Shown: positions 186 through 32,540 of the stretch, piece by piece
How the letters are laid out: each line of letters begins with the position of its first letter
How positions within the stretch are numbered: position 1 is the first letter of the stretch
Origin: Ruminococcus sp.
GTDB taxonomy: Bacteria; Bacillota; Clostridia; Oscillospirales; Ruminococcaceae
Direction of reading: 5' to 3'
DNA: 34,100 nucleotides
Assembly: GCA_014799805.1 (NCBI GenBank)
Contig: JAAVHJ010000029.1
Span: 1-34,100 of the forward strand
Made by a program: the position numbers and the translations under genes
The notes under the pieces: model-generated
The model's database searches: none
Seen by the model: the letters and a program-made list of their open reading frames with translations, nothing else
What the model was told of the DNA's origin: nothing

Positions 186-1964
186 TTAAGTCTTAAATTT
201 TTCAAGAAATGCAAGATATTCTGGATACTTGTCCTGTATCGCATAACAGAATTTTTCAGCTTGTCGCATATGATTTTTTAAATAGTTCTGATAAATTGCT
301 ATACTAGAATCACATGGTCTTTGTGTACTTCTCAGCATATCAATTGCAATCAAAACTCTTTGCCGTGTGTGAATAAAAGCATGTTTTAAAAAAATAGTTT
401 CTATTAATTTGCTATCGAAAAATAATTTAAAATATGATTTTCCAATAGGTACGAATGCTTTTAATAAATCTTTGTGAATAGATTCGCCGACTAATTCCGC
501 AGAGGGAATATATTTTATGATAATTTCTTGATGTTCCAGCCATGAAATTTTATGCAAACCAGAACATAACCCAGAAAAAATTGCACCTGTTGCTTGAAAT
601 TCGCCTAATTCAATTTCTGGTATGTCAAAAATACGGATTGCATTTTCATGAATGCAAAGAGTAGCATACCTACTAGAAGTGTTTTCAATTTTCAATGTTT
701 TGTATTTAGAAAGACAAATTTCACCAACATAAATATCTCTTATTGTTGTTGTATCAATTGTTAATGTGATTAGATTATCATTTATCTTTTGATATTTAAA
801 ATTTTCTATTGGTTGTTCTTTCGTTCCATTATATCCAAATACACCCGCTGGGAGACGATATGAAAATTTATTTTCGGGCAAATCGATATAGATATGATTT
901 TCAGGAACGCCGTTTTTATCATATCGAATCCAAAAAGCACCCCTGCAAATATTTACAGAACGGCATTTGTGCAAGTCTAGTGAATAGGAGAGCTTAGAAT
1001 AAAAACCCAAATAAGAACCCAAAACAGATTTTTTTTGTAAACTAATAGATTTATTTTTTAGGAACGAAAAATCTCTGGTTTTATTTCCAACAAGAAGAAT
1101 CTGTATGTTGTTATCATAGTTATTATATGGAAATTTTCTACCTAAAATTAGTGCATAATTATCTTGCAATGGTGTAAATTGAAATGCAAGCCCATTACTA
1201 ATAACTAAATAACGATAAGAAGTTCCAAAACCGTTTAAACCAGAAGCCCTAAATGCATAATCCTCTAATTTCCAAACATAAGGCGGAAACTGAATATAAT
1301 TTAATTTTTTGCAAGATTCCATTGCAGACTTACCAATATAAATTAAAGTTTTAGGCAAATGTATTTCTGATAATTCTTGACACCCCAAAAAACATGATTC
1401 AGGAATGCTTTGTAAACCGTCTGCAAAAATACAAGTTTGCAATTGACTTTCACGAAAAGCATTTTTGCCAATTTTTCTAATCGTTGACGGAATTTGTATG
1501 TTTTTAATAATTTTATTTTGATAAAAAGCATTTTGTCCAATTTCATTGACTTTTAGATTATCAATAAAAGCAGGGATTACTAAATTTTCACTAGAGCCGT
1601 GATAATTTGTAATTCTAATGCTTTTTGATTTTTTTCTAAATGAAAATCCTTGTTGTATCGCTTGTTTAGAAGTAATACGCAATGCAGGAATTTCAATGCT
1701 TTGAAATTCTGTCAAATCAGGCATATAAACAAGTTCTTTTGGAAGAATATCTTTTTTTGGTGAAATTGGTTCTTGTTTCTTTTCTTGTTTCTTTAGAACA
1801 GAATTTATTTCTTGTGGGGTTGGTTCTTGTGGATTTTTCTGTTTTTTCAGAAAAGAATCTATTTTTTGTGGTGTTATTTGTTCTTGTTTTTCTAATTTAT
1901 CTGACAATACTTTTGCAGAGGCAACACCTAAACTGCCTAATAGTATTTTCCATAATGGATTCAT
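186..1964 (-). CDS. BspA-like leucine-rich-repeat protein
   Basis: This 592-aa protein has a short hydrophobic N-terminus (WKILLGSLGVASAKVL) and then a Lys/Gln/Pro-rich spacer of imperfect repeats (ITPQKIDSFLKKQ, PTPQEINSVLKKQ). From about residue 130 it has LRR_5/BspA-type repeats of the form 'NEIGQNAFYQN', 'RKIGKNAFRES', 'LIYIGKSAMESC'. The C-terminal half is not recognisable. BspA-type repeats usually mediate surface or protein-protein contacts; no enzyme motif is visible. The start is the ATG at 1964, because AAGAGGTG sits 6 bases upstream; the GTG at 1973 overlaps that ribosome site. The gene starts 22 bases after the SDR stop, so the two are probably one operon. There is no classical signal peptide, so surface location is uncertain. 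Confidence 0.75.
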   Translation of the reverse strand: MNPLWKILLGSLGVASAKVLSDKLEKQEQITPQKIDSFLKKQKNPQEPTPQEINSVLKKQEKKQEPISPKKDILPKELVYMPDLTEFQSIEIPALRITSKQAIQQGFSFRKKSKSIRITNYHGSSENLVIPAFIDNLKVNEIGQNAFYQNKIIKNIQIPSTIRKIGKNAFRESQLQTCIFADGLQSIPESCFLGCQELSEIHLPKTLIYIGKSAMESCKKLNYIQFPPYVWKLEDYAFRASGLNGFGTSYRYLVISNGLAFQFTPLQDNYALILGRKFPYNNYDNNIQILLVGNKTRDFSFLKNKSISLQKKSVLGSYLGFYSKLSYSLDLHKCRSVNICRGAFWIRYDKNGVPENHIYIDLPENKFSYRLPAGVFGYNGTKEQPIENFKYQKINDNLITLTIDTTTIRDIYVGEICLSKYKTLKIENTSSRYATLCIHENAIRIFDIPEIELGEFQATGAIFSGLCSGLHKISWLEHQEIIIKYIPSAELVGESIHKDLLKAFVPIGKSYFKLFFDSKLIETIFLKHAFIHTRQRVLIAIDMLRSTQRPCDSSIAIYQNYLKNHMRQAEKFCYAIQDKYPEYLAFLEKFKT

Positions 1965-1986
1965 AAAAATCACCTCTTAAATTTAA

Positions 1987-3012
1987 TTAATAATTAATAA
2001 TTTTATAATCTTTGTAAAACATGCCATAATCTTTAATTTTTTCAGTTGTGAACATGTTTTTTAGAATCGGATATAAAATTCTCATTGCACCATCTTCAAA
2101 TGTCAGATACGGCTTAAAATCTTTGCTAATCTGATACGCAGGCGGAAATTGATTAGATACCCAGCCAGGGTCACAAGAATAGACATAAATTTTATCATGG
2201 ATAAAATCCGAAGCAATCGAATGTGTCATCATATTAAGAGACGCTTTTGCCATATTGGTATGCACATGTCTTGCAAGTTTCTGTTTGGTATGAAAACGCC
2301 CTTCAACAGAACTGACATTAATGACAAATTTTCTGTTAGTATTATCATAAGCAAGACAATAACGTAAGCCATTTGTTAATAAAAATGGAGCTGTTACGTT
2401 AATTAATTGCACTTCTAATAATTCTTGTGCTGAAATTTCTTCAGGTTTGCGAACCCAAGAATTAAAATTCGGCTGTTCGCCATAGTCTAAAATTTGATGT
2501 TCAGGGACAAGGGAAAATAATTGTGTTTGCTTGTCTGTGAGTTGCAAAAGATTCTGACTATAAGAAATTTTTAAATTTTGTTCTTGCAATTCTAATTGTG
2601 CATAATAATCTGATGATTTTTTCACTGTCTGTGCAGCATTATTAATTAAGATATCAAGTTTATTATGACAAATCAAGGCAATCTGTGCAATTAAATCTTG
2701 TATTTTATCAACACGGATTAAATCAAAGCCGATAATAAAAAGCCTGTCTTGAAATTCTATAAAATCAGATTCTTGCTGATAATTTTGATAAGCTGATTTC
2801 GGATAACGTGTGATAACAATTACACTTGCACCCGTTCTAAGTAATTTTAAAGCCGTTGCATAGCCAATTTTAATCCTTCCGCCAGTTACAACTGCAAATT
2901 TTCCTGTTAAATCACAGGTTAATTTCCGCATGGTTTGATTCAATGCTTGACATTCTGGACAAATGCCATATGTTTCCATGTTGCGTTGTCGGCACATAAG
3001 ACAAATTTTCAT
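1987..3012 (-). CDS. SDR-family oxidoreductase with N-terminal zinc ribbon
   Basis: This 341-aa protein starts with a CxxC...CxxC knuckle (C4, C7, C18, C21), then a Rossmann fold of the short-chain dehydrogenase family: nucleotide loop TGGRIKIG at 43-50, NNAAQT near 124-129 and NVSS near 232-235. The usual YxxxK catalytic pair reads TNMAK (T252, K256), so the general-acid Tyr is replaced by Thr. The cofactor loop is also unusual (no TGxxxGIG). An NAD(P)-dependent role is expected from the family, but the substrate cannot be told. About 60 residues between the NNA motif and the later helices are longer than in classical SDRs. AAGGAGG lies just before the ATG. It heads an operon with the downstream LRR gene. 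Confidence 0.8.
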   Translation of the reverse strand: MKICLMCRQRNMETYGICPECQALNQTMRKLTCDLTGKFAVVTGGRIKIGYATALKLLRTGASVIVITRYPKSAYQNYQQESDFIEFQDRLFIIGFDLIRVDKIQDLIAQIALICHNKLDILINNAAQTVKKSSDYYAQLELQEQNLKISYSQNLLQLTDKQTQLFSLVPEHQILDYGEQPNFNSWVRKPEEISAQELLEVQLINVTAPFLLTNGLRYCLAYDNTNRKFVINVSSVEGRFHTKQKLARHVHTNMAKASLNMMTHSIASDFIHDKIYVYSCDPGWVSNQFPPAYQISKDFKPYLTFEDGAMRILYPILKNMFTTEKIKDYGMFYKDYKIINY

Positions 3013-3024
3013 AAAAAAACCTCC

Positions 3025-3053
3025 TTGACAAATTTTAAAAAATATGCTATACT
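3025..3053 (+). promoter_or_regulatory. consensus promoter of the tRNA-like cluster, copy 1
   Basis: TTGACA (3025-3030) and TATACT (3048-3053) are separated by 17 bases, with TG one base before the -10 (extended -10). It points into the first tRNA-like module and lies back to back with the SDR ribosome site. Its sequence is repeated almost exactly at 3417-3445. Confidence 0.8.
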
Positions 3054-3065
3054 GAATATCACCAG

Positions 3066-3119
3066 TAGTTTATATAAAATATCGTTCCGCCCGACGAAGA
3101 AACGGCTTGCCGTCTGGTC
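3066..3119 (+). repeat. module linker 1 (TAGTTTAT motif plus ACGG-CTTG-CCGT hairpin)
   Basis: The motif TAGTTTATATAAAATA (3066-3081) is followed by a hairpin whose stem pairs 3102-3105 (ACGG) with 3110-3113 (CCGT) around a CTTG loop. It lies directly before tRNA-like 1. It is about 85 percent identical to the linker at 3458-3514, with paired changes in the stem. Confidence 0.6.
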
Positions 3120-3194
3120 ATTCGTAATATTTCAAGGGTAGAATATTGCCTCTGCTAAAGGTAAAAGATTATGGTTCGAGTCCATATGCGAATG
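3120..3194 (+). ncRNA. tRNA-like element 1
   Basis: This folds as a cloverleaf. The acceptor ATTCGTA/TGCGAAT is 7 bp (one G-T), extendable to 8 bp with C3119-G3194. The D stem is ATTT/GAAT with GGG in the loop. The T arm is TATGG-TTCGAGT-CCATA. The anticodon arm can be drawn in two ways: a 5-bp stem TTGCC/GGTAA with a 9-base loop TCTGCTAAA, or a shifted stem with a 7-base loop giving anticodon GCT. GCT would mean serine, but the long variable arm of tRNA-Ser is absent. CCA is not encoded. It is a tRNA relative but probably not an ordinary decoding tRNA. Confidence 0.55.
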
Positions 3195-3203
3195 TAACGC
3201 CGA

Positions 3204-3259
3204 TAGTTTATTTAAAACAGCTCTCCCCAAGGAGCAGAAATGATTTTATTCATTCGGCT
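3204..3259 (+). repeat. module linker 2 (TAGTTTAT motif plus GCTC...GAGC hairpin)
   Basis: The motif TAGTTTATTTAAAACA (3204-3219) is followed by a 5-bp hairpin pairing 3220-3224 with 3231-3235. The distance from motif start to the next tRNA-like element is 56 bases, against 54 and 57 in the other two modules. CATTCG at 3251-3256 repeats the bases at the 5' edge of tRNA-like 1 (3119-3124). Confidence 0.5.
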
Positions 3260-3330
3260 ATCCATGTAGCTTAACGGTAGAACGCTATCTCTGCAAGATA
3301 GTAACGGCGGTTCAACTCCGCCCATGGATT
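3260..3330 (+). ncRNA. tRNA-like element 2
   Basis: This is a cloverleaf with a perfect 7-bp acceptor (ATCCATG/CATGGAT), D arm GCTT...GAAC with one C-A mismatch and GG in the loop, anticodon stem CTATC/GATAG, and T arm GGCGG-TTCAACT-CCGCC. The anticodon loop is TCTGCAA. Bases 34-36 would read TGC (Ala), but position 33 is C, not the near-universal U. The D arm resembles Firmicute tRNA-Gly. The discriminator would be T, and CCA is not encoded. A tRNA origin is clear; decoding function is doubtful. Confidence 0.6.
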
Positions 3331-3397
3331 TTTAACTGAAAAAATATGACTGTACTTGCAATGATTTTAGAATCAAAGTAAGTTTTTTTCTAAAATA
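3331..3397 (-). pseudogene. decayed copy of the 3' end of the SpoU methylase gene
   Basis: The bases after tRNA-like 2 match those after tRNA-like 3, which there are the 3' end of the methylase gene. The first part (to about 3360) aligns with 3585-3615. The rest aligns with 3673-3691 and then with about 3719-3738. The first missing segment runs exactly between two GCACTTGCA copies in the intact gene (3607-3615 and 3673-3681), as expected for deletion between short direct repeats. It has no start and encodes nothing alone. It shows that the tRNA-like module and the gene tail were duplicated or acquired together. Confidence 0.65.
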
Positions 3398-3416
3398 ATA
3401 GTCTACAAAAAATTCC

Positions 3417-3445
3417 TTGACAAATTTTAAAAAATATGCTATACT
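3417..3445 (+). promoter_or_regulatory. consensus promoter of the tRNA-like cluster, copy 2
   Basis: TTGACA (3417-3422) and TATACT (3440-3445) are 17 bases apart, with TG one base before the -10. From about 3415 to 3445 the sequence is identical to copy 1 at 3023-3053. It drives the third tRNA-like module. Confidence 0.8.
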
Positions 3446-3457
3446 AGATATTGCCAG

Positions 3458-3514
3458 TAGTTTATATAAAACATCATCGTTCCTCAAGACGAAGAAACAG
3501 CTTGCTGTCTGGTA
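3458..3514 (+). repeat. module linker 3 (TAGTTTAT motif plus ACAG-CTTG-CTGT hairpin)
   Basis: The motif TAGTTTATATAAAACA (3458-3473) is followed by a hairpin pairing 3497-3500 (ACAG) with 3505-3508 (CTGT) around CTTG. Compared with linker 1, one G-C stem pair is A-T, and both sides changed. This is what a conserved RNA stem would show. Confidence 0.6.
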
Positions 3515-3584
3515 TCCCATGTAGCATAACGGTAAGGCACTATCTCTTCATGATAGCAATGGCGGTTCAACTCCGCCCATGGGT
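3515..3584 (+). ncRNA. tRNA-like element 3
   Basis: This is a cloverleaf with 6 bp of acceptor (CCCATG/CATGGG) flanked by a T-T mismatch, D arm GCAT...AGGC with one mismatch and GG in the loop, anticodon stem CTATC/GATAG, and T arm GGCGG-TTCAACT-CCGCC identical to element 2. The loop is TCTTCAT, so bases 34-36 would read TTC (Glu), but position 33 is again C. CCA is not encoded. Its last 18 bases are antisense to the end of the SpoU methylase gene. Confidence 0.58.
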
Positions 3585-4376
3585 TTTCAACTGCCAAAAT
3601 GCAACTGCACTTGCAGCAGCAACATTCAGGGAATCAATGCCCTGTTTCATAGGAATTTTCGCAATATAATCCGCACTTGCAATGGTTTCTGGTGTCAGTC
3701 CGTCCCCCTCTGAACCCAAAATCAAAGCAAGTTTTTTTTCTGTCATTAAATTTTTATCCTCAATGCTAATTGCTTGATTATCCAATGCCAATGCAACGGT
3801 TTTAAAATTTAAATTTTTTAAAACTTGATAATTATAATTTTCAAGAATCGTCCAAGGAATTTGAAACACTGTTCCCATGCTAACTCTGATAGAACGTCTA
3901 TATAATGGATTTGCACAATTAGGCGTTACTAGCACAGCGTCTATAAACATTGCAGATGCAGAACGAAAAATCGCTCCAATATTTGTTGGATTGACAATAT
4001 TTTCTAATACAGCAATTCTAGTGGCATGTTCGCAAATTTCAGAAACACTTGGCAAAGGTTTTCTTCTCATGGCACATAATGCTCCTCTGACAAGCTGAAA
4101 ACCTGTTAATTTTGTTAATAATTCTGCATTGGCTGTGTAAACTGGAATATTTATAGTTTTAAAATAGCTTAAAAAATCCTGTGTAAGATGTTTTGTTTCC
4201 AGTAATACAGAAATTGGCTCATAACCAGCTTGTAAAGCACGAATAATCACAGTTGGACTTTCAGCAATAAAAATACCTGTTTCTGGTTCGTAATAATGCA
4301 ATAACTGCGTTTCAGATAAGCCAGCATATATTGCAAGTTCTGGTGTATTAAAATCTTGAATAGAAATAATATGCAT
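3567..4376 (-). CDS. SpoU/TrmH-family RNA 2'-O-methyltransferase
   Basis: This 269-aa protein has an N-terminal substrate-binding region (about 1-105, with 'IFIAESPTVIIRALQAGYEP') and a C-terminal SPOUT domain carrying the three family motifs: ENIVNPTNIGAIFRSA, LGSEGDGLTPETI and IDSLNVAAASAVAF. The family transfers methyl from SAM to a ribose 2'-OH in rRNA or tRNA; the target here cannot be decided. AAGGAGAA lies 12 bases before the ATG. The last six codons (HGRS plus stop, and part of Thr) lie inside tRNA-like element 3 read in antisense, so this C-terminus may not be ancestral. A decayed second copy of the gene's end is at 3331-3397. Confidence 0.85.
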   Translation of the reverse strand: MHIISIQDFNTPELAIYAGLSETQLLHYYEPETGIFIAESPTVIIRALQAGYEPISVLLETKHLTQDFLSYFKTINIPVYTANAELLTKLTGFQLVRGALCAMRRKPLPSVSEICEHATRIAVLENIVNPTNIGAIFRSASAMFIDAVLVTPNCANPLYRRSIRVSMGTVFQIPWTILENYNYQVLKNLNFKTVALALDNQAISIEDKNLMTEKKLALILGSEGDGLTPETIASADYIAKIPMKQGIDSLNVAAASAVAFWQLKTHGRS

Positions 4377-5661: not shown

Positions 5662-5690
5662 ATTATACCATTTTTCACCGAAAATGGCAA
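5662..5690 (-). promoter_or_regulatory. promoter of the membrane-protein gene with inverted repeat in the spacer
   Basis: On the minus strand, TTGCCA (5690-5685) and TATAAT (5667-5662) are 17 bases apart. The interval 5668-5687 contains an inverted repeat, CCATTTTTC-acc-GAAAATGG with one unmatched T, filling the space between -35 and -10. This is a typical place for a repressor operator. Confidence 0.75.
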
Positions 5691-5732
5691 GTAGTTTCTG
5701 AAAAATATTTTTAATTTTTTTCAAAAAAGCAC

Positions 5733-5761
5733 TTGACAAATATATTAAACTGTGCTATAAT
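5733..5761 (+). promoter_or_regulatory. trp operon promoter
   Basis: TTGACA (5733-5738) and TATAAT (5756-5761) have a 17-base spacer and TG one base before the -10. This is a full consensus match. It transcribes the T-box leader and the trp genes. Confidence 0.9.
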
Positions 5762-5767
5762 AATCTC

Positions 5768-6098
5768 AGATTTTAGTTTTTTCATATTTAAAAATCCTTT
5801 GAGCAAAGGTAAGTAGTTCCAAAAAACAGTGTTCAGAGAGCTGGTAGTTGGTGAAAATCCCAGTACACATGCTTTGGAATGAATGGATTTGTTAGGAGCA
5901 AAAGCAAAATTAGTTGATTTTATGCATTTATTAATTAAGAGTAGTTTGCGCCGTATTCCCTACGTTATAAGGGTAGGATATGCTAGTATCTGATATATCT
6001 AAAAAAGGAGCAGTTTGAAAATTTTCTGACTGCTTGAATTTGGGTGGCACAACGAGTCAATCGTCCCATGTCGTGGGGAAGATTGGCTTTTTATTTTT
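5768..6098 (+). promoter_or_regulatory. T-box leader, tryptophan-specific
   Basis: The leader has the T-box landmarks in order. The Stem I signature CAGAGAGCTGGTAGTTGGTG is at 5834-5853. The specifier region GAATGGATTTG has UGG (Trp) at 5884-5886. The T-box bulge TGGGTGGCACAACG starts at 6041. In its UGGN element N is C, which would pair with the G discriminator base of tRNA-Trp. T-boxes bind uncharged tRNA and then form an antiterminator instead of the terminator at 6055-6097. Here this couples trp operon transcription to tRNA-Trp charging. Confidence 0.93.
6055..6097 (+). terminator. T-box-controlled terminator
   Basis: AGTCAATC-g-TCCC pairs with GGGGA-a-GATTGGCT and is followed by TTTTATTTTT. 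The 5' arm begins just after the T-box bulge sequence, so terminator and antiterminator exclude each other. The trpE ribosome site AAGGAGGAAAA follows directly. Confidence 0.9.
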
Positions 6099-13964: not shown

Positions 13965-16613
13965 ATGAAAAAAATAAATTATATTGCTGGAAAAAGCAAT
14001 TATAACAACAATGCACAATGGCTCCCATTGAAAACACATGTATTAGATACAGCAGGAATAATTAAGAAATTATATGATAATTGGCTTGCAAATTCTGTAG
14101 TAGAATTTATTGCAAACCAGCTTGCATTAAGCTATGATAGAGAAAAAGCAATAGAACGTGGTCGTGATTTTTGCGAATTAGTTGCTTTGTTACATGATAT
14201 TGGAAAATTAACCCCTGCATTTCAAAGTAAGATTTTCAAAAATATTCAAGGCTATGCAGATAGTCTTTCTGATATGGGAATTATAATTTCAACTATGGGA
14301 GAAGTTTCAAAATCTCATCATGCGATTGCAGGACAAGTAATTCTAGAAGAATATCATTTTCCAAAAGAAATTAGTATTATTATTGGCTCTCATCATGGAA
14401 AAAGTCAGCAAAGTATAAATCAATTAAGTTTATATCGGGCAAATTATTTTGGTAAAAATGGAAAACAAGAGAAAGAATGGAGACAGCTTTGGGAAGAATG
14501 GATTCATGAAGCACTTGAAAAAACTAATTTTACAATAGAGAATTTGCCAAAGCCTAATATACCAGTGCAAATGATTCTGACTGGATTGTTAATCATGGCG
14601 GATTGGATTGCAAGTAATACAAATTATTTCCCGTATATAGATGCATTAAAAATTTTAAGTGATGAACAAGAAATAAAAAACAGAATCACACAAGCATGGG
14701 ATAAATTACATTTTTCTGAAAAATGGGAAGTTTCAGGAATATATGATTTTCAAGAATTATTCAAAAATCATTTTGGATTTTCATCAAAATCATTTCAAAA
14801 TGCTGTCATGAAAATTGTTGCTGAACATAATCAATCTGGAATTTATATTCTGGAGGCTCCTATGGGAGTTGGAAAAACAGAAACAGCTCTTGCCATTGCA
14901 GAAATATTAGCTGGAAAGTCTGGTGTAAGTGGTGTGTATTTCGGATTGCCTACACAGGCAACTGCAAATGGCATTTTTGGCAGAATTCATGAATGGACAA
15001 CAAAATTAGAAAATGATGAAACACATACGATTAGGCTTGCACATGGTATGACAGATTTAAATGACGAATATCAGAATTTATTACAGGGTTCTGCCATATA
15101 TTCTGAAGATGCTGACGATGAAACTATTATCGTGCATGAATGGTTTGAGAGACGTAAAAATGCATTATTAGCAGATTTTGTGATTGCTACAGTAGACCAA
15201 TTTTTACTTGCTTCTCTGAAACAAAAACATGTTATGCTTCGACATTTGGGACTTGCTGGAAAAGTTGTAATTATTGATGAATGTCATGCTTATGATGCTT
15301 ATATGAATATTTATCTTGACCATACGTTGACTTGGATGAGGGCTTATCATGTGCCTGTTATTATTCTTTCTGCAACACTTCCTCCACAAAGAAGAAATGC
15401 ATTAATAAAAGCTTATCATAAATCTGCTATATTTTCTGATTCTTGTGATAATTTACAATATCCTGCTTTAACTTATATTAATCATGATACGAATACTGTG
15501 ATACATGAAAAATTAGAAAATAATGTCGTAAGTAAAACAGTCTCTGTTGTAAAATTGCAAGAAATTGATTTAATTGCTAAAATTTCAGAAAAGCTTTCAG
15601 ATGGTGGCTGTATGGCAGTAATTGTAAATACTGTGAATTATGCACAAGAATTAAGTAGTAAATTTTCAGAAGCAGAAGCATTACAAGATTTTGAAATTAT
15701 TTGTTTTCATAGTCGGTTTATTGCAACAGACAGAGCAAATATTGAAAAAGAGCTGCTTAAGAGAGTTGGTAAAGATTCCAAACCAGAACAAAGAAATAAA
15801 TTAATTATCGTCGGCACACAAGTATTAGAGCAATCATTGGATATTGATTTCGATTACATGATAACAGAACTTTGTCCAATGGATTTATTGCTTCAAAGGT
15901 CTGGCAGATTGCATCGCCATGAGAAAAAACGTCCTCAAAAATTAGCTTATCCAGAACTTGCTATTTTGTATTCTGAAGAAAGAAAAAATTATATTTATCA
16001 TGATTGGATTCTGTGGAGAACAGAAAATTATCTTCCAGATAAGCTTATGATTCCAGAATGTATTCCAGAGCTTGTTAGCAAAGTTTATGCGGAACCAGAA
16101 ACTATAGAAGAATCTGAAAATGAAAGGTATAAAAATTATCAGTATGAAATAGAACAAAAACAATATCATGCTAAAAAATATTGTATTAAATCCAATTTAT
16201 TGAAAAGTAAACGAAAAAATACGCTTGCTTATTTTTTGGATAATACTGCGGAAAATTCCGCCGAAGCCGAAGCTTGTGTAAGAGATACAGATGAAACAAT
16301 TGAAGTACTTGTACTTCGGAAAATTTCAGAAAATCAATATAGTTTGCTATCAGGAGCTGTTATATTTGATACGACTTTAACACCAAATGAAGATGAAGCG
16401 AAAATAATTGCAAAAGGACGCTTAAAACTTCCTCAATATTTCAGTAAAGATTTTTATGCTACATTAAAAGCATTAGATATGATTCCAAAAAATTGGAAAT
16501 GTTCCAAATGGTTGAAAGGAGAATTATTGTTATTACTAGATGAAGAAAATAAAACAGAATTACTTGGAAAAATATTATATTATAGTAAAGAACATGGATT
16601 AAAAATGAAGTAA
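13965..16613 (+). CDS. cas3: CRISPR-associated nuclease-helicase Cas3 (type I-E)
   Basis: Cas3 (882 aa) is recruited by Cascade and degrades target DNA. The N-terminal HD nuclease shows H25, H77-D78 in LLHDIGK, H118-H119 and H143-H144. The SF2 helicase shows Walker A APMGVGKTETA (K304), DECH at 438-441 in motif II, LSATLPP in motif III and QRSGRLHRH in motif VI. All catalytic residues are present, so the protein should be active. AAAGGAG lies before the ATG. There is a 124-base gap and a new promoter before cse1, so cas3 is a separate transcription unit from Cascade. Confidence 0.96.
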   Translation: MKKINYIAGKSNYNNNAQWLPLKTHVLDTAGIIKKLYDNWLANSVVEFIANQLALSYDREKAIERGRDFCELVALLHDIGKLTPAFQSKIFKNIQGYADSLSDMGIIISTMGEVSKSHHAIAGQVILEEYHFPKEISIIIGSHHGKSQQSINQLSLYRANYFGKNGKQEKEWRQLWEEWIHEALEKTNFTIENLPKPNIPVQMILTGLLIMADWIASNTNYFPYIDALKILSDEQEIKNRITQAWDKLHFSEKWEVSGIYDFQELFKNHFGFSSKSFQNAVMKIVAEHNQSGIYILEAPMGVGKTETALAIAEILAGKSGVSGVYFGLPTQATANGIFGRIHEWTTKLENDETHTIRLAHGMTDLNDEYQNLLQGSAIYSEDADDETIIVHEWFERRKNALLADFVIATVDQFLLASLKQKHVMLRHLGLAGKVVIIDECHAYDAYMNIYLDHTLTWMRAYHVPVIILSATLPPQRRNALIKAYHKSAIFSDSCDNLQYPALTYINHDTNTVIHEKLENNVVSKTVSVVKLQEIDLIAKISEKLSDGGCMAVIVNTVNYAQELSSKFSEAEALQDFEIICFHSRFIATDRANIEKELLKRVGKDSKPEQRNKLIIVGTQVLEQSLDIDFDYMITELCPMDLLLQRSGRLHRHEKKRPQKLAYPELAILYSEERKNYIYHDWILWRTENYLPDKLMIPECIPELVSKVYAEPETIEESENERYKNYQYEIEQKQYHAKKYCIKSNLLKSKRKNTLAYFLDNTAENSAEAEACVRDTDETIEVLVLRKISENQYSLLSGAVIFDTTLTPNEDEAKIIAKGRLKLPQYFSKDFYATLKALDMIPKNWKCSKWLKGELLLLLDEENKTELLGKILYYSKEHGLKMK

Positions 16614-28248: not shown

Positions 28249-31080
28249 TTATTTTGCAAGCAATGTTTTTTTCAACAGAATCAAATCATAAATATTCACA
28301 ATGCCATCTTGATTCATATCTGCAATTTGAAATTGCTCTTTTGTGAAATTCTGCTGTAACATTAAATATTTATGCAATGCAACTAAATCTAAAACAGCTA
28401 CTTGCCCATTATTATCAATATCACCTTTTAACAGTGTTGGTTTTGGCGGTTCTGTTGGTGCAGTTGTTTCTATAGGCTTAGTTGGTTCTGTTGGCTGAGT
28501 TGTTACAATTGGTTCTGTTTTTACATTCCATTTTTGACAAGCATTGCCATTCGCTTCCCATTGCTGAATATTTGCACCATTTTCAAGGCTTGCACTAGCA
28601 ACTTCTACAAGTGCAGTATCTTTTGATGCATGTGTCATAATGCTATAGGACCCATCAAGATTTTTTGTAAATCTAAACAACATAGCACTGTCTTTATTAG
28701 AATATTTCACAATATCAATATTACTGCCGTTTTTACTGCCCTCTGCTTTTAATACATAGTTTGAATCCTGTGCAGAGCAGATATAATAATAATTTCCTGA
28801 ACCAAAAGATTTTAATACCCATTTCTGATTCTCATAATCATTAATAGCCCATTGCTGAATATTAGTATTCTCTTCTGTTTTGCCGTCAGCAATTTCTAAA
28901 GCAAGACCACTGTTTAAATTCGTAAACGTATACATAACGCTAGTATCCATTGCAACACCTGGGTCAGCAACAGATTCTAAAATCCAGTCCTGACAATTCA
29001 CGCCATTTATTTCCCATTGCTGAGCATTTGCACCAGATTCTTTACTTGCATCTGCAATTTCTAATGCTGATTTTTCGCCAGAAACTCTTGTACGAATTTT
29101 ATAAGAACCATCTGCATTTTGTGTCAGCATAAATTGCTGATTCGTACCGCCATTATACTGGTAAATATCAACGTTTGTACCGTTATCTGTTTTTTTGCCT
29201 GCAATATCTAACACAAATTTAGCTCCATCATCAATTGCAGAAACAATATAATAATAGCCGTCTCCAGCACTATATAATTTCCAAATATTATGTATTTCTG
29301 AACCGTCTGAACCCCATTGCTGCACATTTGCACCATTTTTAGCCTCTGCACTTGCAACTTCCAGATATAAACCAGAATTTACATTTTTAAATCTATAAGT
29401 TGCACCCTCTGTAAAGCTTGCAGGTGTATAACTATCTACAACAGGTTCTTCATTTGCAGATTCGTAATAACCAGCACTCGGCACGCCACTCTTAGCAAAT
29501 CTTAAATACATCCAGTTATTATTATTAGTCTGACTGCCACTATAATTAGAACAATATTTTTTTGCCTCGTCTGCTGTAATCGTCACATAATCATAATTTG
29601 TTGATGGTCTCCATGTAGAATTCAATGCAGAGCCCTCAATTGTCGTACGTTTGCAATTTACAAACTTTGAACCTGTTTCTGCATAAGCACCTACAAATGT
29701 AATTTCATTCCAGTCACAAATTACATTGCCACCGTTTTCATAATAGCAATTTTCAGCAAAAATATCACAGCCACTATGAACCGTATATGCCATACTAAAT
29801 TCATTTACATAGTTATTAAGTGAATGATAATAGCCCCAACGCATTAATCCTGGACCTCTGGTTAATGTCTGATAAAATTTATTGCTTGCTAATGTCATTC
29901 TAGGATAATTATCATATTTATTTTTGACATCTTGCGTGTCGTCAGGATAGCCTAAAATGACACCATATTCATGCAATCCAAAAGAACTATCAGAAACAGT
30001 ACAGTAATCTGCATCATAGCAACAGGCAATAAATTTGTCCCAATCTGGTTCTCCTGTAGAAGCTTTGTTATAATCTGCATGCCCTGTAAAAGTTACATGG
30101 TCTACCCAAAGATTTTCACCAGAACCAAAATAAACTACAATGGAATCATTACCATTAGAGTCTGCATCATGCTGTAAGTCAAAATTTTTGATAACAACAT
30201 TATCACCTACACCATTTTTTGTTGCTGTGCAAAACTGAACATTATATAGTGTATGATTTGAATAACTACCAACAATTGTTTTATTACTATGCACATAAAT
30301 TCTACCATCAGGGCAATAATAATGATTTTGTGAATCTTTTTGTAAATTAGTTATTTTAATATCATCCGTTACAACGATAGTATAAGGTGTATCAGAAGTA
30401 GCATATTTTTTCAAATCATCAAAATTAGAAACTTCCACTGTCTCGCCGAATAAACCGCCAATGTCACCTGCTTTGATATTGCCTGTATTATCATCAGAAC
30501 AATAACCAGCAAAGCCTTGTAATCCGTCTGCATTTAATAACCAAAGTTGAGAATCAGCCTCAGTATATTTTTCTAATGTCAAACCATTTGCACCCTGTGT
30601 CAAAGCTAATCCTGTATCAGAATAATTGACAATTTTATAATATAAATCATTTCCTAAATGGTCTTGTTTGACTGGAATAACATACCAATGCTGTGTTTTG
30701 TCAGACTCATAACCATACATCACAACTTCTGTTCCAGAATTGACTTGATAACCTTTCGGTGTGAGCAAACGCCCTGATTCTGCATTGCATAGCTTAAAAT
30801 ACGTACCATTTGCATCAGCTCCCACTCTGTCAAACCTCCATGAGGGAGCGAGATTATTGCCTAATTTCTGCACAGCTACGGCAGAATTATCTTTTGTGTT
30901 AGTTTCAGTTACTACTTTAGAATTATCTTTTGTCGCAATATTCATGAGCTGTACAGGATAATCTGCTGAAACTGCCTTTGCTGTTAATGAAATATCTTTT
31001 GGCAATACGGAACACAATGTCATAGCAAACACTGTCATTGCACTTAATATTTTACTAAACAGCGGATTTTGATTTTGCAT
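28249..31080 (-). CDS. secreted pectate lyase (PL1-like) with ricin-type lectin modules and C-terminal dockerin
   Basis: This 943-aa protein has, in order: a signal peptide (about 1-39), a ricin-like trefoil (about 40-185), a PL1-type beta-helix (about 215-530) with NLWVDHVTFTGHAD and RGPGLMRWGYYHS (likely catalytic Arg), two further ricin-type repeats (about 565-700 and 715-855, each with several QQW motifs), a Thr/Pro linker and a dockerin (885-943). The dockerin has two Ca-binding repeats, GDIDNNGQVAVLDL and ADMNQDGIVNIYDL. It should cut polygalacturonate and dock onto a cellulosome scaffold. AAGGAGG precedes the ATG. The downstream EAL gene is in the same probable operon. Confidence 0.93.
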   Translation of the reverse strand: MQNQNPLFSKILSAMTVFAMTLCSVLPKDISLTAKAVSADYPVQLMNIATKDNSKVVTETNTKDNSAVAVQKLGNNLAPSWRFDRVGADANGTYFKLCNAESGRLLTPKGYQVNSGTEVVMYGYESDKTQHWYVIPVKQDHLGNDLYYKIVNYSDTGLALTQGANGLTLEKYTEADSQLWLLNADGLQGFAGYCSDDNTGNIKAGDIGGLFGETVEVSNFDDLKKYATSDTPYTIVVTDDIKITNLQKDSQNHYYCPDGRIYVHSNKTIVGSYSNHTLYNVQFCTATKNGVGDNVVIKNFDLQHDADSNGNDSIVVYFGSGENLWVDHVTFTGHADYNKASTGEPDWDKFIACCYDADYCTVSDSSFGLHEYGVILGYPDDTQDVKNKYDNYPRMTLASNKFYQTLTRGPGLMRWGYYHSLNNYVNEFSMAYTVHSGCDIFAENCYYENGGNVICDWNEITFVGAYAETGSKFVNCKRTTIEGSALNSTWRPSTNYDYVTITADEAKKYCSNYSGSQTNNNNWMYLRFAKSGVPSAGYYESANEEPVVDSYTPASFTEGATYRFKNVNSGLYLEVASAEAKNGANVQQWGSDGSEIHNIWKLYSAGDGYYYIVSAIDDGAKFVLDIAGKKTDNGTNVDIYQYNGGTNQQFMLTQNADGSYKIRTRVSGEKSALEIADASKESGANAQQWEINGVNCQDWILESVADPGVAMDTSVMYTFTNLNSGLALEIADGKTEENTNIQQWAINDYENQKWVLKSFGSGNYYYICSAQDSNYVLKAEGSKNGSNIDIVKYSNKDSAMLFRFTKNLDGSYSIMTHASKDTALVEVASASLENGANIQQWEANGNACQKWNVKTEPIVTTQPTEPTKPIETTAPTEPPKPTLLKGDIDNNGQVAVLDLVALHKYLMLQQNFTKEQFQIADMNQDGIVNIYDLILLKKTLLAK

Positions 31081-32385: not shown

Positions 32386-32459
32386 TCGAGATGACAGGAC
32401 TCGAACCTGCGGCATCTTGGTCCCAAACCAAGCACTCTACCAAACTGAGTTACATCTCG
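32386..32459 (-). tRNA. tRNA-Pro (anticodon TGG)
   Basis: A canonical 74-base cloverleaf. The acceptor is CGAGATG/CATCTCG with discriminator A, the D arm ACTC...GAGT, the anticodon loop TTTGGGA with U33 present, and the T arm GCAGG-TTCGAGT-CCTGT. CCA is not encoded. It is co-transcribed with tRNA-Arg, 7 bases apart. Its normal loop contrasts with the tRNA-like elements at 3120-3584. Confidence 0.95.
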
Positions 32460-32466
32460 CTATCAG

Positions 32467-32540
32467 TGTGCCTGACAGAACTCGAATCTGCGCTCTGAGG
32501 AGTCGGAGTCCTCTGTTTTATCCAACTAAACTACAGGCAC
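32467..32540 (-). tRNA. tRNA-Arg (anticodon CCG)
   Basis: A canonical 74-base cloverleaf. The acceptor is GTGCCTG/CAGGCAC with discriminator A, the D arm GTTT...AAAC, the anticodon stem GAGGA/TCCTC with loop CTCCGAC, and the T arm GCAGA-TTCGAGT-TCTGT. CCA is not encoded. It is the first gene of the tRNA pair. Confidence 0.95.

What the first reader, a model, noticed from the sequence alone, without database searches (positions are those of the whole stretch)
3025..3584. Three tRNA-like modules with a conserved, non-decoding anticodon loop
Seen: three cloverleaf folds (3120-3193, 3260-3329, 3515-3584), each preceded by the same TAGTTTAT-type motif and a hairpin. The motif-to-fold distance is nearly constant (54, 56 and 57 bases). 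In the simplest foldings all three anticodon loops begin TCT: TCTGCTAAA, TCTGCAA, TCTTCAT. Position 33 is then C instead of the near-universal U of decoding tRNAs. T arms and acceptor stems are well paired, so these are not random decay. The host's true tRNAs at 32386-32540 have a normal U33. Inference: a family of structured RNAs that copy tRNA shape for another purpose, for example a decoy for anticodon nucleases, a T-box or modification-enzyme ligand, or a selfish tRNA-derived repeat.
Basis: partly seen in the sequence, partly recalled or inferred. Interest (0 to 1): 0.78.

Follow-up and report, generated by a model that had tools for sequence, protein, structure and literature searches.

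The report
Paired tRNA-mimic RNAs with protein partner
Beside two unusual protein genes, this bacterium and some of its relatives carry small RNA genes that come in pairs, both halves shaped like transfer RNAs but probably not used for reading genes; what they do is unknown, and the best guess is that they form a particle with the neighbouring proteins.

Summary
The three folds are real, but the first takes a normal U33 loop; only the second and third have C33. The "motif plus hairpin" before each fold is itself a degenerate cloverleaf: across 34 leaders 94.0% of cells pair and 15 of 18 pairs change on both sides (slid controls at most 54.5% and 10). Each module is a tandem pair: A (no T-loop) plus B (with T-loop). 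Relatives carry up to nine modules, inherited with two genes that sit beside them here: an SDR-fold protein with four conserved cysteines and no catalytic tyrosine (19 of 19), and a leucine-rich-repeat protein X. In the genus, 17 of 17 genomes with strong model hits have SDR or X, against 1 of 21 others. One Deinococcus plasmid has a tRNA-like gene directly before its SDR homologue. At one array position the anticodon arm differs between species within a kept frame. I read this as a non-decoding RNA-protein system; that, and its function, are inferred.

The parts
3025..3053 (+). promoter of units 1 and 2 (TTGACA-17-TATACT, TG before the second hexamer)
   Evidence: 11 of 12. Similar stretches elsewhere in the genome (which scored 14 of 153 candidates): 3 of the 13 outside the window lie at most 40 nt upstream of a tRNA on the same strand
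3061..3118 (+). leader A1: degenerate cloverleaf without T-loop
   Evidence: model R1, 66.6 bits, E 4.6e-15 (a member of the model's own alignment); parse
3119..3195 (+). B1: tRNA-like, anticodon loop CTGCTAA (Ser GCU type, U33), short variable region
3199..3258 (+). leader A2: degenerate cloverleaf
   Evidence: R1, 70.7 bits (a member of the model's alignment); its minimum-energy fold is the four-arm cloverleaf
3260..3330 (+). B2: tRNA-like, loop TCTGCAA (Ala UGC type, C33)
3417..3445 (+). second copy of the promoter, for unit 3
3453..3513 (+). leader A3, a copy of A1
   Evidence: R1, 62.0 bits (a member of the model's alignment); identity 0.85 to A1, 0.74 to A2
3514..3586 (+). B3: tRNA-like, loop TCTTCAT (Glu UUC type, C33), a copy of B2
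   Evidence: identity 0.85 to B2, 0.62 to B1
1987..3012 (-). SDR: N-terminal putative zinc finger (C4, C7, C18, C21; no Pfam zinc-finger match) plus short-chain dehydrogenase fold with T252 in place of the catalytic Tyr; divergent, start codon 12 nt from the array promoter
186..1973 (-). X: BspA-type leucine-rich-repeat protein with a conserved C-terminal part, downstream of SDR

Best explanation
A dedicated, non-decoding RNA-protein system. SHOWN by sequence: each unit is a tandem pair of tRNA-like folds, A (shortened acceptor stem, D arm, anticodon-like arm, no T-loop) followed directly by B (tRNA-like, usually with T-loop). Units have sigma-70-type promoters, multiply and recombine, and are inherited together with an SDR-fold protein that has four conserved cysteines and no catalytic tyrosine, and/or with LRR protein X. 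SHOWN for one array position only: the frame (leader, D and T arms) is kept while the anticodon arm differs between species. INFERRED: SDR and/or X bind the tRNA-like frame, working like the tRNA-holding dehydrogenase subunit of human mitochondrial RNase P. INFERRED with less confidence: the bound RNA presents anticodon arms as bait or decoy to something that cuts or reads anticodon loops.
For: Leader covariation: 94.0% of cells paired (shuffles 78.1), 15 of 18 pairs with double changes (34 of the 38 non-redundant leaders). B covariation: 90.6%, 19 of 21 pairs. A followed by B in arrays and solitary units. Co-inheritance in 38 genus genomes: SDR in 14 of 17 with pairs vs 1 of 21 without, X 14 of 17 vs 0 of 21, either 17 of 17 vs 1 of 21. 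In 396 family genomes R1 hits in 10, SDR in 9, 7 in common, Fisher 1.5e-11, not corrected for kinship; of the two SDR genomes without an R1 hit there, both have tRNA calls beside the SDR, with leaders recognised by R1 in L196 and only by eye in L197. Deinococcus plasmid: tRNA-like gene directly before the SDR homologue. SDR: T252 and the four Cys in 19 of 19. Non-decoding signs: C33 in 28 of 71, Ser types of 72-77 nt against 92 nt in the host. Arm change: at position 4 (5 units, types UUC, CUC, CUC, UGC, GUC) anticodon arm 0.65 identical, acceptor 0.86, D 0.94, T 1.00. [quoted passage not shown]
Against: No expression, binding or charging data. At three other positions the arm is as conserved as the frame: 0.86, 0.92, and 0.80 at position 3 (0.89 without hybrid L070_2405), so arm exchange is not general. 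42 of 71 loops keep U33 and 65 of 81 keep TTC at the T-loop start. B2 is the only Ala(TGC) gene seen among the 47 tRNA matches of this 88%-complete assembly, so a decoding role for it is not excluded; Ile is missing too, and both often lie in rRNA operons that MAGs miss (recalled). Pairs without SDR: G002, G009, G024 (1e-40), G165 and G344 (1e-50). G014 has SDR with no unit beside it; G287 likewise, its one weak hit being elsewhere. Three actinobacterial SDR records have no tRNA call within 11-13 kb. AAA_13 (the PrrC/RloC nuclease family, recalled) does not track pairs: 2 of 17 vs 4 of 21. Single-sequence folding of the window's pieces is weak.
Confidence: 0.45

Rival explanations
1. Accessory decoding tRNAs: B parts are extra tRNAs used in translation, and A is only a structured 5' leader that aids processing.
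For: ARAGORN and Rfam accept many B parts; 42 of 71 loops have U33 and 65 of 81 have TTC at T54-56; the promoter resembles those before some host tRNAs; B2 is the only Ala(TGC) gene seen in the assembly.
Against: C33 in 28 of 71 versus 0 of 32 host tRNAs; Ser types without long variable arm; host has its own Ser GCT, Glu TTC and CTC, Trp CCA, Gly TCC/GCC, Asp GTC, Arg ACG; leader fold kept across genera; inheritance with SDR or X.
Confidence: 0.14
2. Regulatory pseudo-tRNAs acting as T-box ligands or anti-ligands, as reported for Bacillus cereus tRNA-Other.
For: A T-box leader lies at 5790-6071 before trpE; homologues of the window's trpE lie near the units in L106, L109 and L200; Trp(CCA) types occur in other arrays. 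tRNA-Other has a Trp anticodon and a reported T-box role (PMC3399842, passages).
Against: The window's own array has no Trp type; loci in other genera (L193, L195, L196) show no match to the window's trp proteins in the 12-14 kb fetched (other genes there were not domain-searched); Ser, Glu and Ala types dominate; the leader and the SDR/X link stay unexplained.
Confidence: 0.1
3. Amino-acid donors: charged B RNAs feed a non-ribosomal pathway in which the SDR is an enzyme.
For: Restricted set of anticodons (GCT 18, CTC 13, CGC 7, GTC 5, GCC 5 of 71); an SDR-fold protein is the commonest neighbour; non-translational tRNAs are known in peptidoglycan synthesis (PMC3399842, passages).
Against: Catalytic Tyr absent in 19 of 19 SDR sequences; among the neighbours clustered only SDR and X recur widely (the rest were not domain-searched).
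Confidence: 0.12
4. A variant of the Ro/Y-RNA particle (Y RNAs mimic tRNA).
For: TROVE-domain hits occur in 8 of 38 genus genomes, 7 of them with pairs (Fisher 0.009, not corrected for kinship).
Against: 10 of 17 pair genomes, the window's own included, have no TROVE hit at 1e-5; the hits lie on other contigs than the units, and six of the eight genomes have only weak ones (E 1e-7 to 7e-6); no Rfam Y RNA match at the gathering cut-off in the window or at E up to 5 in five loci.
Confidence: 0.06
5. Selfish or decaying tRNA-derived repeats without function.
For: Duplication and recombination are evident; G014 has three scattered units; some units look eroded (L206 B has an aberrant T-loop; second units of L083 and L104 lack part of the D-loop).
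Against: Covariation in both A and B; units beside SDR in several genera; no scatter in the window's genome.
Confidence: 0.05

Closest known systems
Pseudo-tRNA tRNA-Other of Bacillus cereus (PMC3399842, passages)
   Same: tRNA-like RNA with a reported role outside translation; Trp anticodon.
   Different: Described as a single pseudo-tRNA; the passages seen mention no tandem partner fold, array, SDR or LRR partner.
Bacterial Y RNAs of the YrlA type with Ro60/Rsr (PMC7790460, passages)
   Same: Small RNA with a tRNA-like domain encoded beside its protein partner; its tRNA-like domain is suggested as a possible competitor of an anticodon nuclease.
   Different: Partner is a TROVE protein; here the neighbours are SDR and X, there is no Rfam Y RNA match in the loci searched, and no TROVE hit in the window's genome.
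Human mitochondrial RNase P subunits SDR5C1 and TRMT10C (PMC10602865, abstract)
   Same: A short-chain dehydrogenase whose presence, not its activity, matters for handling tRNAs of eroded structure.
   Different: Human subcomplex with a methyltransferase; its SDR is an active enzyme with no zinc finger (recalled). Likeness of working, not membership.
Phage tRNAs that evade tRNA-targeting defences (PMC11555353, search listing only)
   Same: Extra tRNA genes tied to attack on tRNAs.
   Different: Phage-borne. Here the units are chromosomal; the SDR has no match in 50,697 phage records at 1e-10 and none in viral contigs by peptide pattern.

Membership tests
Decoding tRNA | U33 in the anticodon loop | tested here: not met
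   Not met by the family as a whole: 28 of 71 distinct B parts with a 7-nt loop have C33 and 1 has A33, against 0 of 32 host tRNAs. In the window B2 and B3 fail, B1 passes.
Decoding tRNA | long variable arm in bacterial tRNA-Ser | tested here: not met
   ARAGORN Ser(GCT) calls in arrays are 72-77 nt against 92 nt in the host. My parser gives a variable region of 3-6 nt for 18 of 18 GCT types, but it allowed only 3-8 nt.
Decoding tRNA | cloverleaf with T-loop | tested here: inconclusive
   B parts: 65 of 81 begin the T-loop with TTC, 16 do not. Leaders A have no T-loop in the parses.
Decoding tRNA | aminoacylation and polysome association | not testable with these tools
   needs RNA from cells
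Bacterial Y RNA / Ro RNP | TROVE (Ro) protein in the genome | tested here: not met
   no hit at 1e-5 in the window's genome (88% complete) nor in 10 of 17 pair genomes; met in 7 of 17
Bacterial Y RNA / Ro RNP | match to an Rfam Y RNA family | tested here: not met
   none listed in the window or in five loci at E up to 5
Catalytic short-chain dehydrogenase | Tyr-x-x-x-Lys catalytic pair | tested here: not met
   T252-N-M-A-K256 in 19 of 19; T252 aligns with the Tyr four before the Lys in 1spx
Catalytic short-chain dehydrogenase | Rossmann SDR fold | tested here: met
   Pfam adh_short; Foldseek best E 1.7e-12 to an SDR structure, model of mean pLDDT 70.8
Known anti-phage defence protein | match to a PADLOC model | tested here: not met
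   0 families at 0.01 for SDR and X
T-box ligand pseudo-tRNA | change of T-box gene expression on deletion | not testable with these tools
   needs a mutant

The most novel reading that the evidence does not exclude
A bait-display system: a double tRNA-like frame, held by a non-catalytic SDR-fold protein with a zinc finger and read out by a leucine-rich-repeat protein, presents a changing set of anticodon arms. It would intercept, or sense attack by, enzymes that cut or modify tRNA anticodon loops. A Deinococcus plasmid with tRNA-like stretches before its SDR homologue, in another layout, would be a distant form of it.
Probability: 0.17. Interest if true: 0.93.

Novelty: categorically new. Interest (0 to 1): 0.8.

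Why it matters
tRNA mimics are known, but tandem pairs of them, in expandable arrays and co-inherited with a dehydrogenase-fold protein that has lost its catalytic tyrosine, appear in nothing that my ten literature searches listed (open-licence PubMed Central only, listings and a few passages seen), and the leaders match no Rfam 15 family at the gathering cut-off. If the reading is right, it is a bacterial counterpart to the mitochondrial case in which a dehydrogenase helps to hold tRNAs, and the arrays are a natural set of variants from which the target might be inferred. It also warns that tRNA finders such as ARAGORN call many of these ordinary tRNA genes.

Tried and rejected
C33 as a family rule: rejected. 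Simple promoter or hairpin repeat: rejected, because the 'motif' is the D arm of a cloverleaf (GTTT/AAAY, changing on both sides to GCTT/AAGY and GTGT/GCAY). Phage origin: no SDR match in phages or by peptide pattern in viral contigs; the ten viral stretches were not examined. AAA_13 nucleases as the partner: no association. Ro protein as the general partner: partial overlap only. Wider spread: at 1e-30 the only genome with the SDR in the class sample (391) and in the phylum sample (398) was the window's own. Deinococcus: another layout (tRNA-like stretch, then a hairpin whose apex is like an anticodon arm); no R1 hit; the minimum-energy folds of the two tRNA-like stretches are not cloverleaves (z -1.1, -1.3); one plasmid only, so homology is open. 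Fold search of X: at E 0.001 or better only LRR proteins.

Corrected on recheck: one search made the anticodon stem at position 3 look variable (0.56) only because my parser shifted register between units; with the whole arm aligned it is 0.80, or 0.89 without the hybrid L070_2405. So exchange is shown at one of four positions, plus a group of 15 paralogous units in 7 genomes (arm 0.63, D 0.73, T 0.85) that was itself selected by acceptor sequence.

Selection before counts: of 81 stretches I took 21 (by organism title or multiple matches) plus the window; 13 of the other 60 got ARAGORN only, 47 were not looked at. Of 38 non-redundant leaders 34 went into A1; L076_3756, L096_7014, L100_1831 and L104_1188 were left out, at least one for a faulty parse. 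The structure counted on A1 came from these same sequences. Of 93 modules 85 B parts passed, 81 distinct; the 8 dropped are six Ser units with an irregular acceptor and U33, one unit cut by a contig end (L069_1276) and L107_2028. In one search, 25 of 38 genomes had a match at 0.01; I counted the 17 with E below 1e-7 and took the 8 with E 0.006-0.01 for ordinary tRNAs, since one ordinary tRNA (window Arg) scores 24 bits; those 8 were not inspected. That searches drew the same 396 genomes is inferred from their listed handles. In L218 the X-like frame after the unit was recognised by eye from its first codons.
Full report
OBSERVATION. The window holds three tRNA-like folds at 3119-3195, 3260-3330 and 3514-3586 (ARAGORN). 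The Rfam tRNA model scores them 29.1, 52.6 and 46.7 bits, cut-off 29. TAGTTTAT begins at 3066, 3204 and 3458, which gives the claimed distances of 54, 56 and 57 bases. The claim that all three have C33 is wrong for the first fold: with the closing T-A pair formed its loop is CTGCTAA with U33. B2 (TCTGCAA) and B3 (TCTTCAT) have C33. The 32 distinct host tRNAs in the 30 loci examined all have U33; 13 of 32 have CCA near the 3' end, so lack of CCA in the array says nothing. Folded alone, the six pieces have energy z-scores of -0.22 to -2.61; only A2 and B3 have a cloverleaf-like minimum.

THE LEADER IS ALSO tRNA-LIKE. A parse of 84 modules shows, before each fold, a 5-bp closing stem, two bases (TA), a 4-bp arm GTTT/AAAY, one base or a few, a 5-bp arm with a loop of 4-10 nt, about four bases (mostly AGAA), a hairpin without a T-loop, and the second strand of the closing stem (the second units of the long arrays fit poorly). 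In other genera the 4-bp arm changes on both sides together (GCTT/AAGC, GTGT/GCAC) and the second arm can have a 7-nt loop. On a plain MAFFT alignment of 34 leaders 94.0% of cells form standard pairs (shuffles 78.1%, 0 of 500 as high), 15 of 18 pairs have changes on both sides and the covariation score is 0.555; the number of further pair types (34) is not above the shuffles (31.8, 78 of 500 as high). Sliding the partners by 1-3 columns gives at most 54.5%, 10 pairs and 0.143. The structure came from these sequences, which favours it somewhat. Model R1 built from it scores an ordinary tRNA of the window at 24 bits (32470-32538), in keeping with a tRNA relationship. The unit is therefore a tandem pair: A without T-loop, B usually with one. 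B parts covary too: 90.6% paired, 19 of 21 pairs with double changes over 49 non-redundant sequences, against at most 51.0% and 16 when slid.

ARRAYS AND THEIR ORIGIN. A strict pattern (motif, spacer, T-loop) hits 11 of 38 genomes of the genus, clustered at one locus (two contigs in G020), with none for the reversed control. A scan of the species-genome collection gave 81 stretches; those with several matches are all titled Ruminococcus or Oscillospiraceae. G008 has nine R1 matches in one array. The window's third unit is a hybrid: promoter and leader like unit 1 (0.92, 0.85), B like unit 2 (0.85), with part of the 3' end of the SpoU-type gene copied along. Sister genome G003 has only two units. 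New units thus arise by duplication and recombination.

PARTNER GENES. The gene divergent from the array, starting 12 nt from its promoter, encodes the SDR; the next gene is X, a BspA-type LRR protein. In 38 genus genomes R1 gives strong hits (E below 1e-7) in 17, SDR (1e-40) is in 15 and X (1e-30) in 14. SDR is in 14 of 17 genomes with pairs against 1 of 21 without, X in 14 of 17 against 0 of 21, either in 17 of 17 against 1 of 21. The exception, G016, has a contig that ends at the SDR start. In 396 family genomes R1 hits 10 (1e-4) and SDR 9 (1e-50), 7 in common. The SDR genomes G155 and G301 have tRNA calls beside the SDR; R1 recognises leaders in the first (L196) and not convincingly in the second (L197, 14 bits), where I see one by eye. 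G287's only hit, a weak one, is elsewhere. Units also sit directly before X in L079, L081, L112 and L211 and apparently in L218; G014 has SDR with three solitary units elsewhere. Fisher values (down to 1.5e-11) are not corrected for kinship, and many genomes are incomplete. Against a strict rule: G002, G009, G024, G165 and G344 have a pair but no SDR at the thresholds used; X was not searched in the family sample.

THE SDR. In 19 sequences (51-77% identity to the window's within the family; 38-41% for Deinococcus, Tsukamurella and two Streptomyces) the four N-terminal cysteines, T-G-G-R and H-x-H-T-N-M-A-K are invariant. Alignment to 1spx puts T252 at the place of the catalytic Tyr. The zinc finger is inferred from the cysteines; Pfam reports only the SDR domain. 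A model (mean pLDDT 70.8) matches SDR structures. Outside the family I found it in no other genome of the class (391) and phylum (398) samples, in no phage record and on four plasmids of 72,556. On one, of Deinococcus sp. KNUC1210, an ARAGORN tRNA-Ala (5678-5751; Rfam 52.4 bits) stands directly upstream of the SDR (annotated start 5809), with a second tRNA-like stretch before it. Each is followed by a hairpin whose apex looks like an anticodon arm (CTGCTAA, CTCCAAC; z -5.4 and -3.7), while the two tRNA-like stretches themselves do not fold to a cloverleaf alone. The other three records show no tRNA call nearby. This hints at a wider system but rests on one plasmid.

NON-DECODING SIGNS. Of 81 distinct B parts 71 have a 7-nt loop: 42 U33, 28 C33, 1 A33; six dropped Ser units have U33 too. 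Array Ser types called by ARAGORN are 72-77 nt while the host's Ser(GCT) is 92 nt. The host has its own Ser GCT, Glu TTC and CTC, Trp, Gly, Asp and Arg ACG, but among its 47 tRNA matches I saw no Ala (other than B2) and no Ile; the assembly is 88% complete.

THE ANTICODON ARM. At array position 4 (five units from five genomes, chosen by the first eight leader bases) the arm is 0.65 identical, against acceptor 0.86, D 0.94, T 1.00 and leader 0.91, with types UUC, CUC, UGC and GUC. At three other positions the arm is as conserved as the frame (0.86, 0.80, 0.92). Arm exchange is thus real but local. Array-to-array differences in unit content add variety in the set of arms.

MECHANISM. Shown: paired tRNA-like RNAs, inheritance with SDR or X, SDR without catalytic Tyr. 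Inferred: SDR and/or X bind the frame; precedent is the SDR5C1-TRMT10C subcomplex, where the proteins but not their activities are needed (PMC10602865, abstract). Inferred with less confidence: the anticodon arms act as bait; [quoted passage not shown] AAA_13 proteins do not track the arrays, so the target, if any, is another.

COMPARISON. Not a Y RNA by the tests possible here (no Rfam match, no TROVE hit in the window's genome and in 10 of 17 pair genomes), although 7 of the 8 TROVE genomes have pairs (Fisher 0.009). Somewhat like pseudo-tRNA tRNA-Other, with its Trp anticodon and T-box role (PMC3399842, passages); the T-box before trpE near the array keeps that rival alive. PADLOC has no match for SDR or X. 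My ten paper searches listed nothing that describes this arrangement; only open-licence papers are held.

VERDICT. Real, conserved and well beyond chance; function unproven. I rate it categorically new as an arrangement, tRNA mimicry itself being a known theme.

Noticed in passing
window 5790-6071 and 6115 onward: T-box leader before trpE and further genes on the same strand; homologues of the window's trpE also lie near the units in L106, L109 and L200.
   Followed up: partly
window 13965-16613: Cas3 with HD domain (882 aa), with further unexamined ORFs on the same strand after it.
   Followed up: no
window 28249-31080: Pectate lyase with ricin-type lectin repeats and a dockerin domain, as in cellulosome-forming ruminococci (recalled).
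   Followed up: no
window 3330-3400 and 3567-4376 (-): A piece of the 3' end of the SpoU-type RNA methyltransferase gene appears duplicated together with the third unit; the gene's 3' end overlaps B3.
   Followed up: partly
G008:C78, G014:C3, G041:C83, G042:C47, G043:C115, G044:C31, G045:C146, G048:C87: TROVE matches, weak in six of the eight, in frames of 493-599 aa; 7 of these 8 genomes carry pairs. Cause unknown.
   Followed up: partly
L221 (G287:C62): Here the leader A, not B, carries the arm CCGCC-CTGCTAA-GGCGG that is otherwise found in Ser-type B parts.
   Followed up: no
ends of the arrays in L070, L077, L078, L104, L122: A last TAGTTT motif stands directly before a hairpin followed by T-rich sequence at the array end.
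   Followed up: no
G000:C64 (6.4 kb contig; loci L241, L242): Two low-scoring extra tRNA calls, Glu(TTC) and Leu(TAA), about 3.8 kb apart on one small contig.
   Followed up: no
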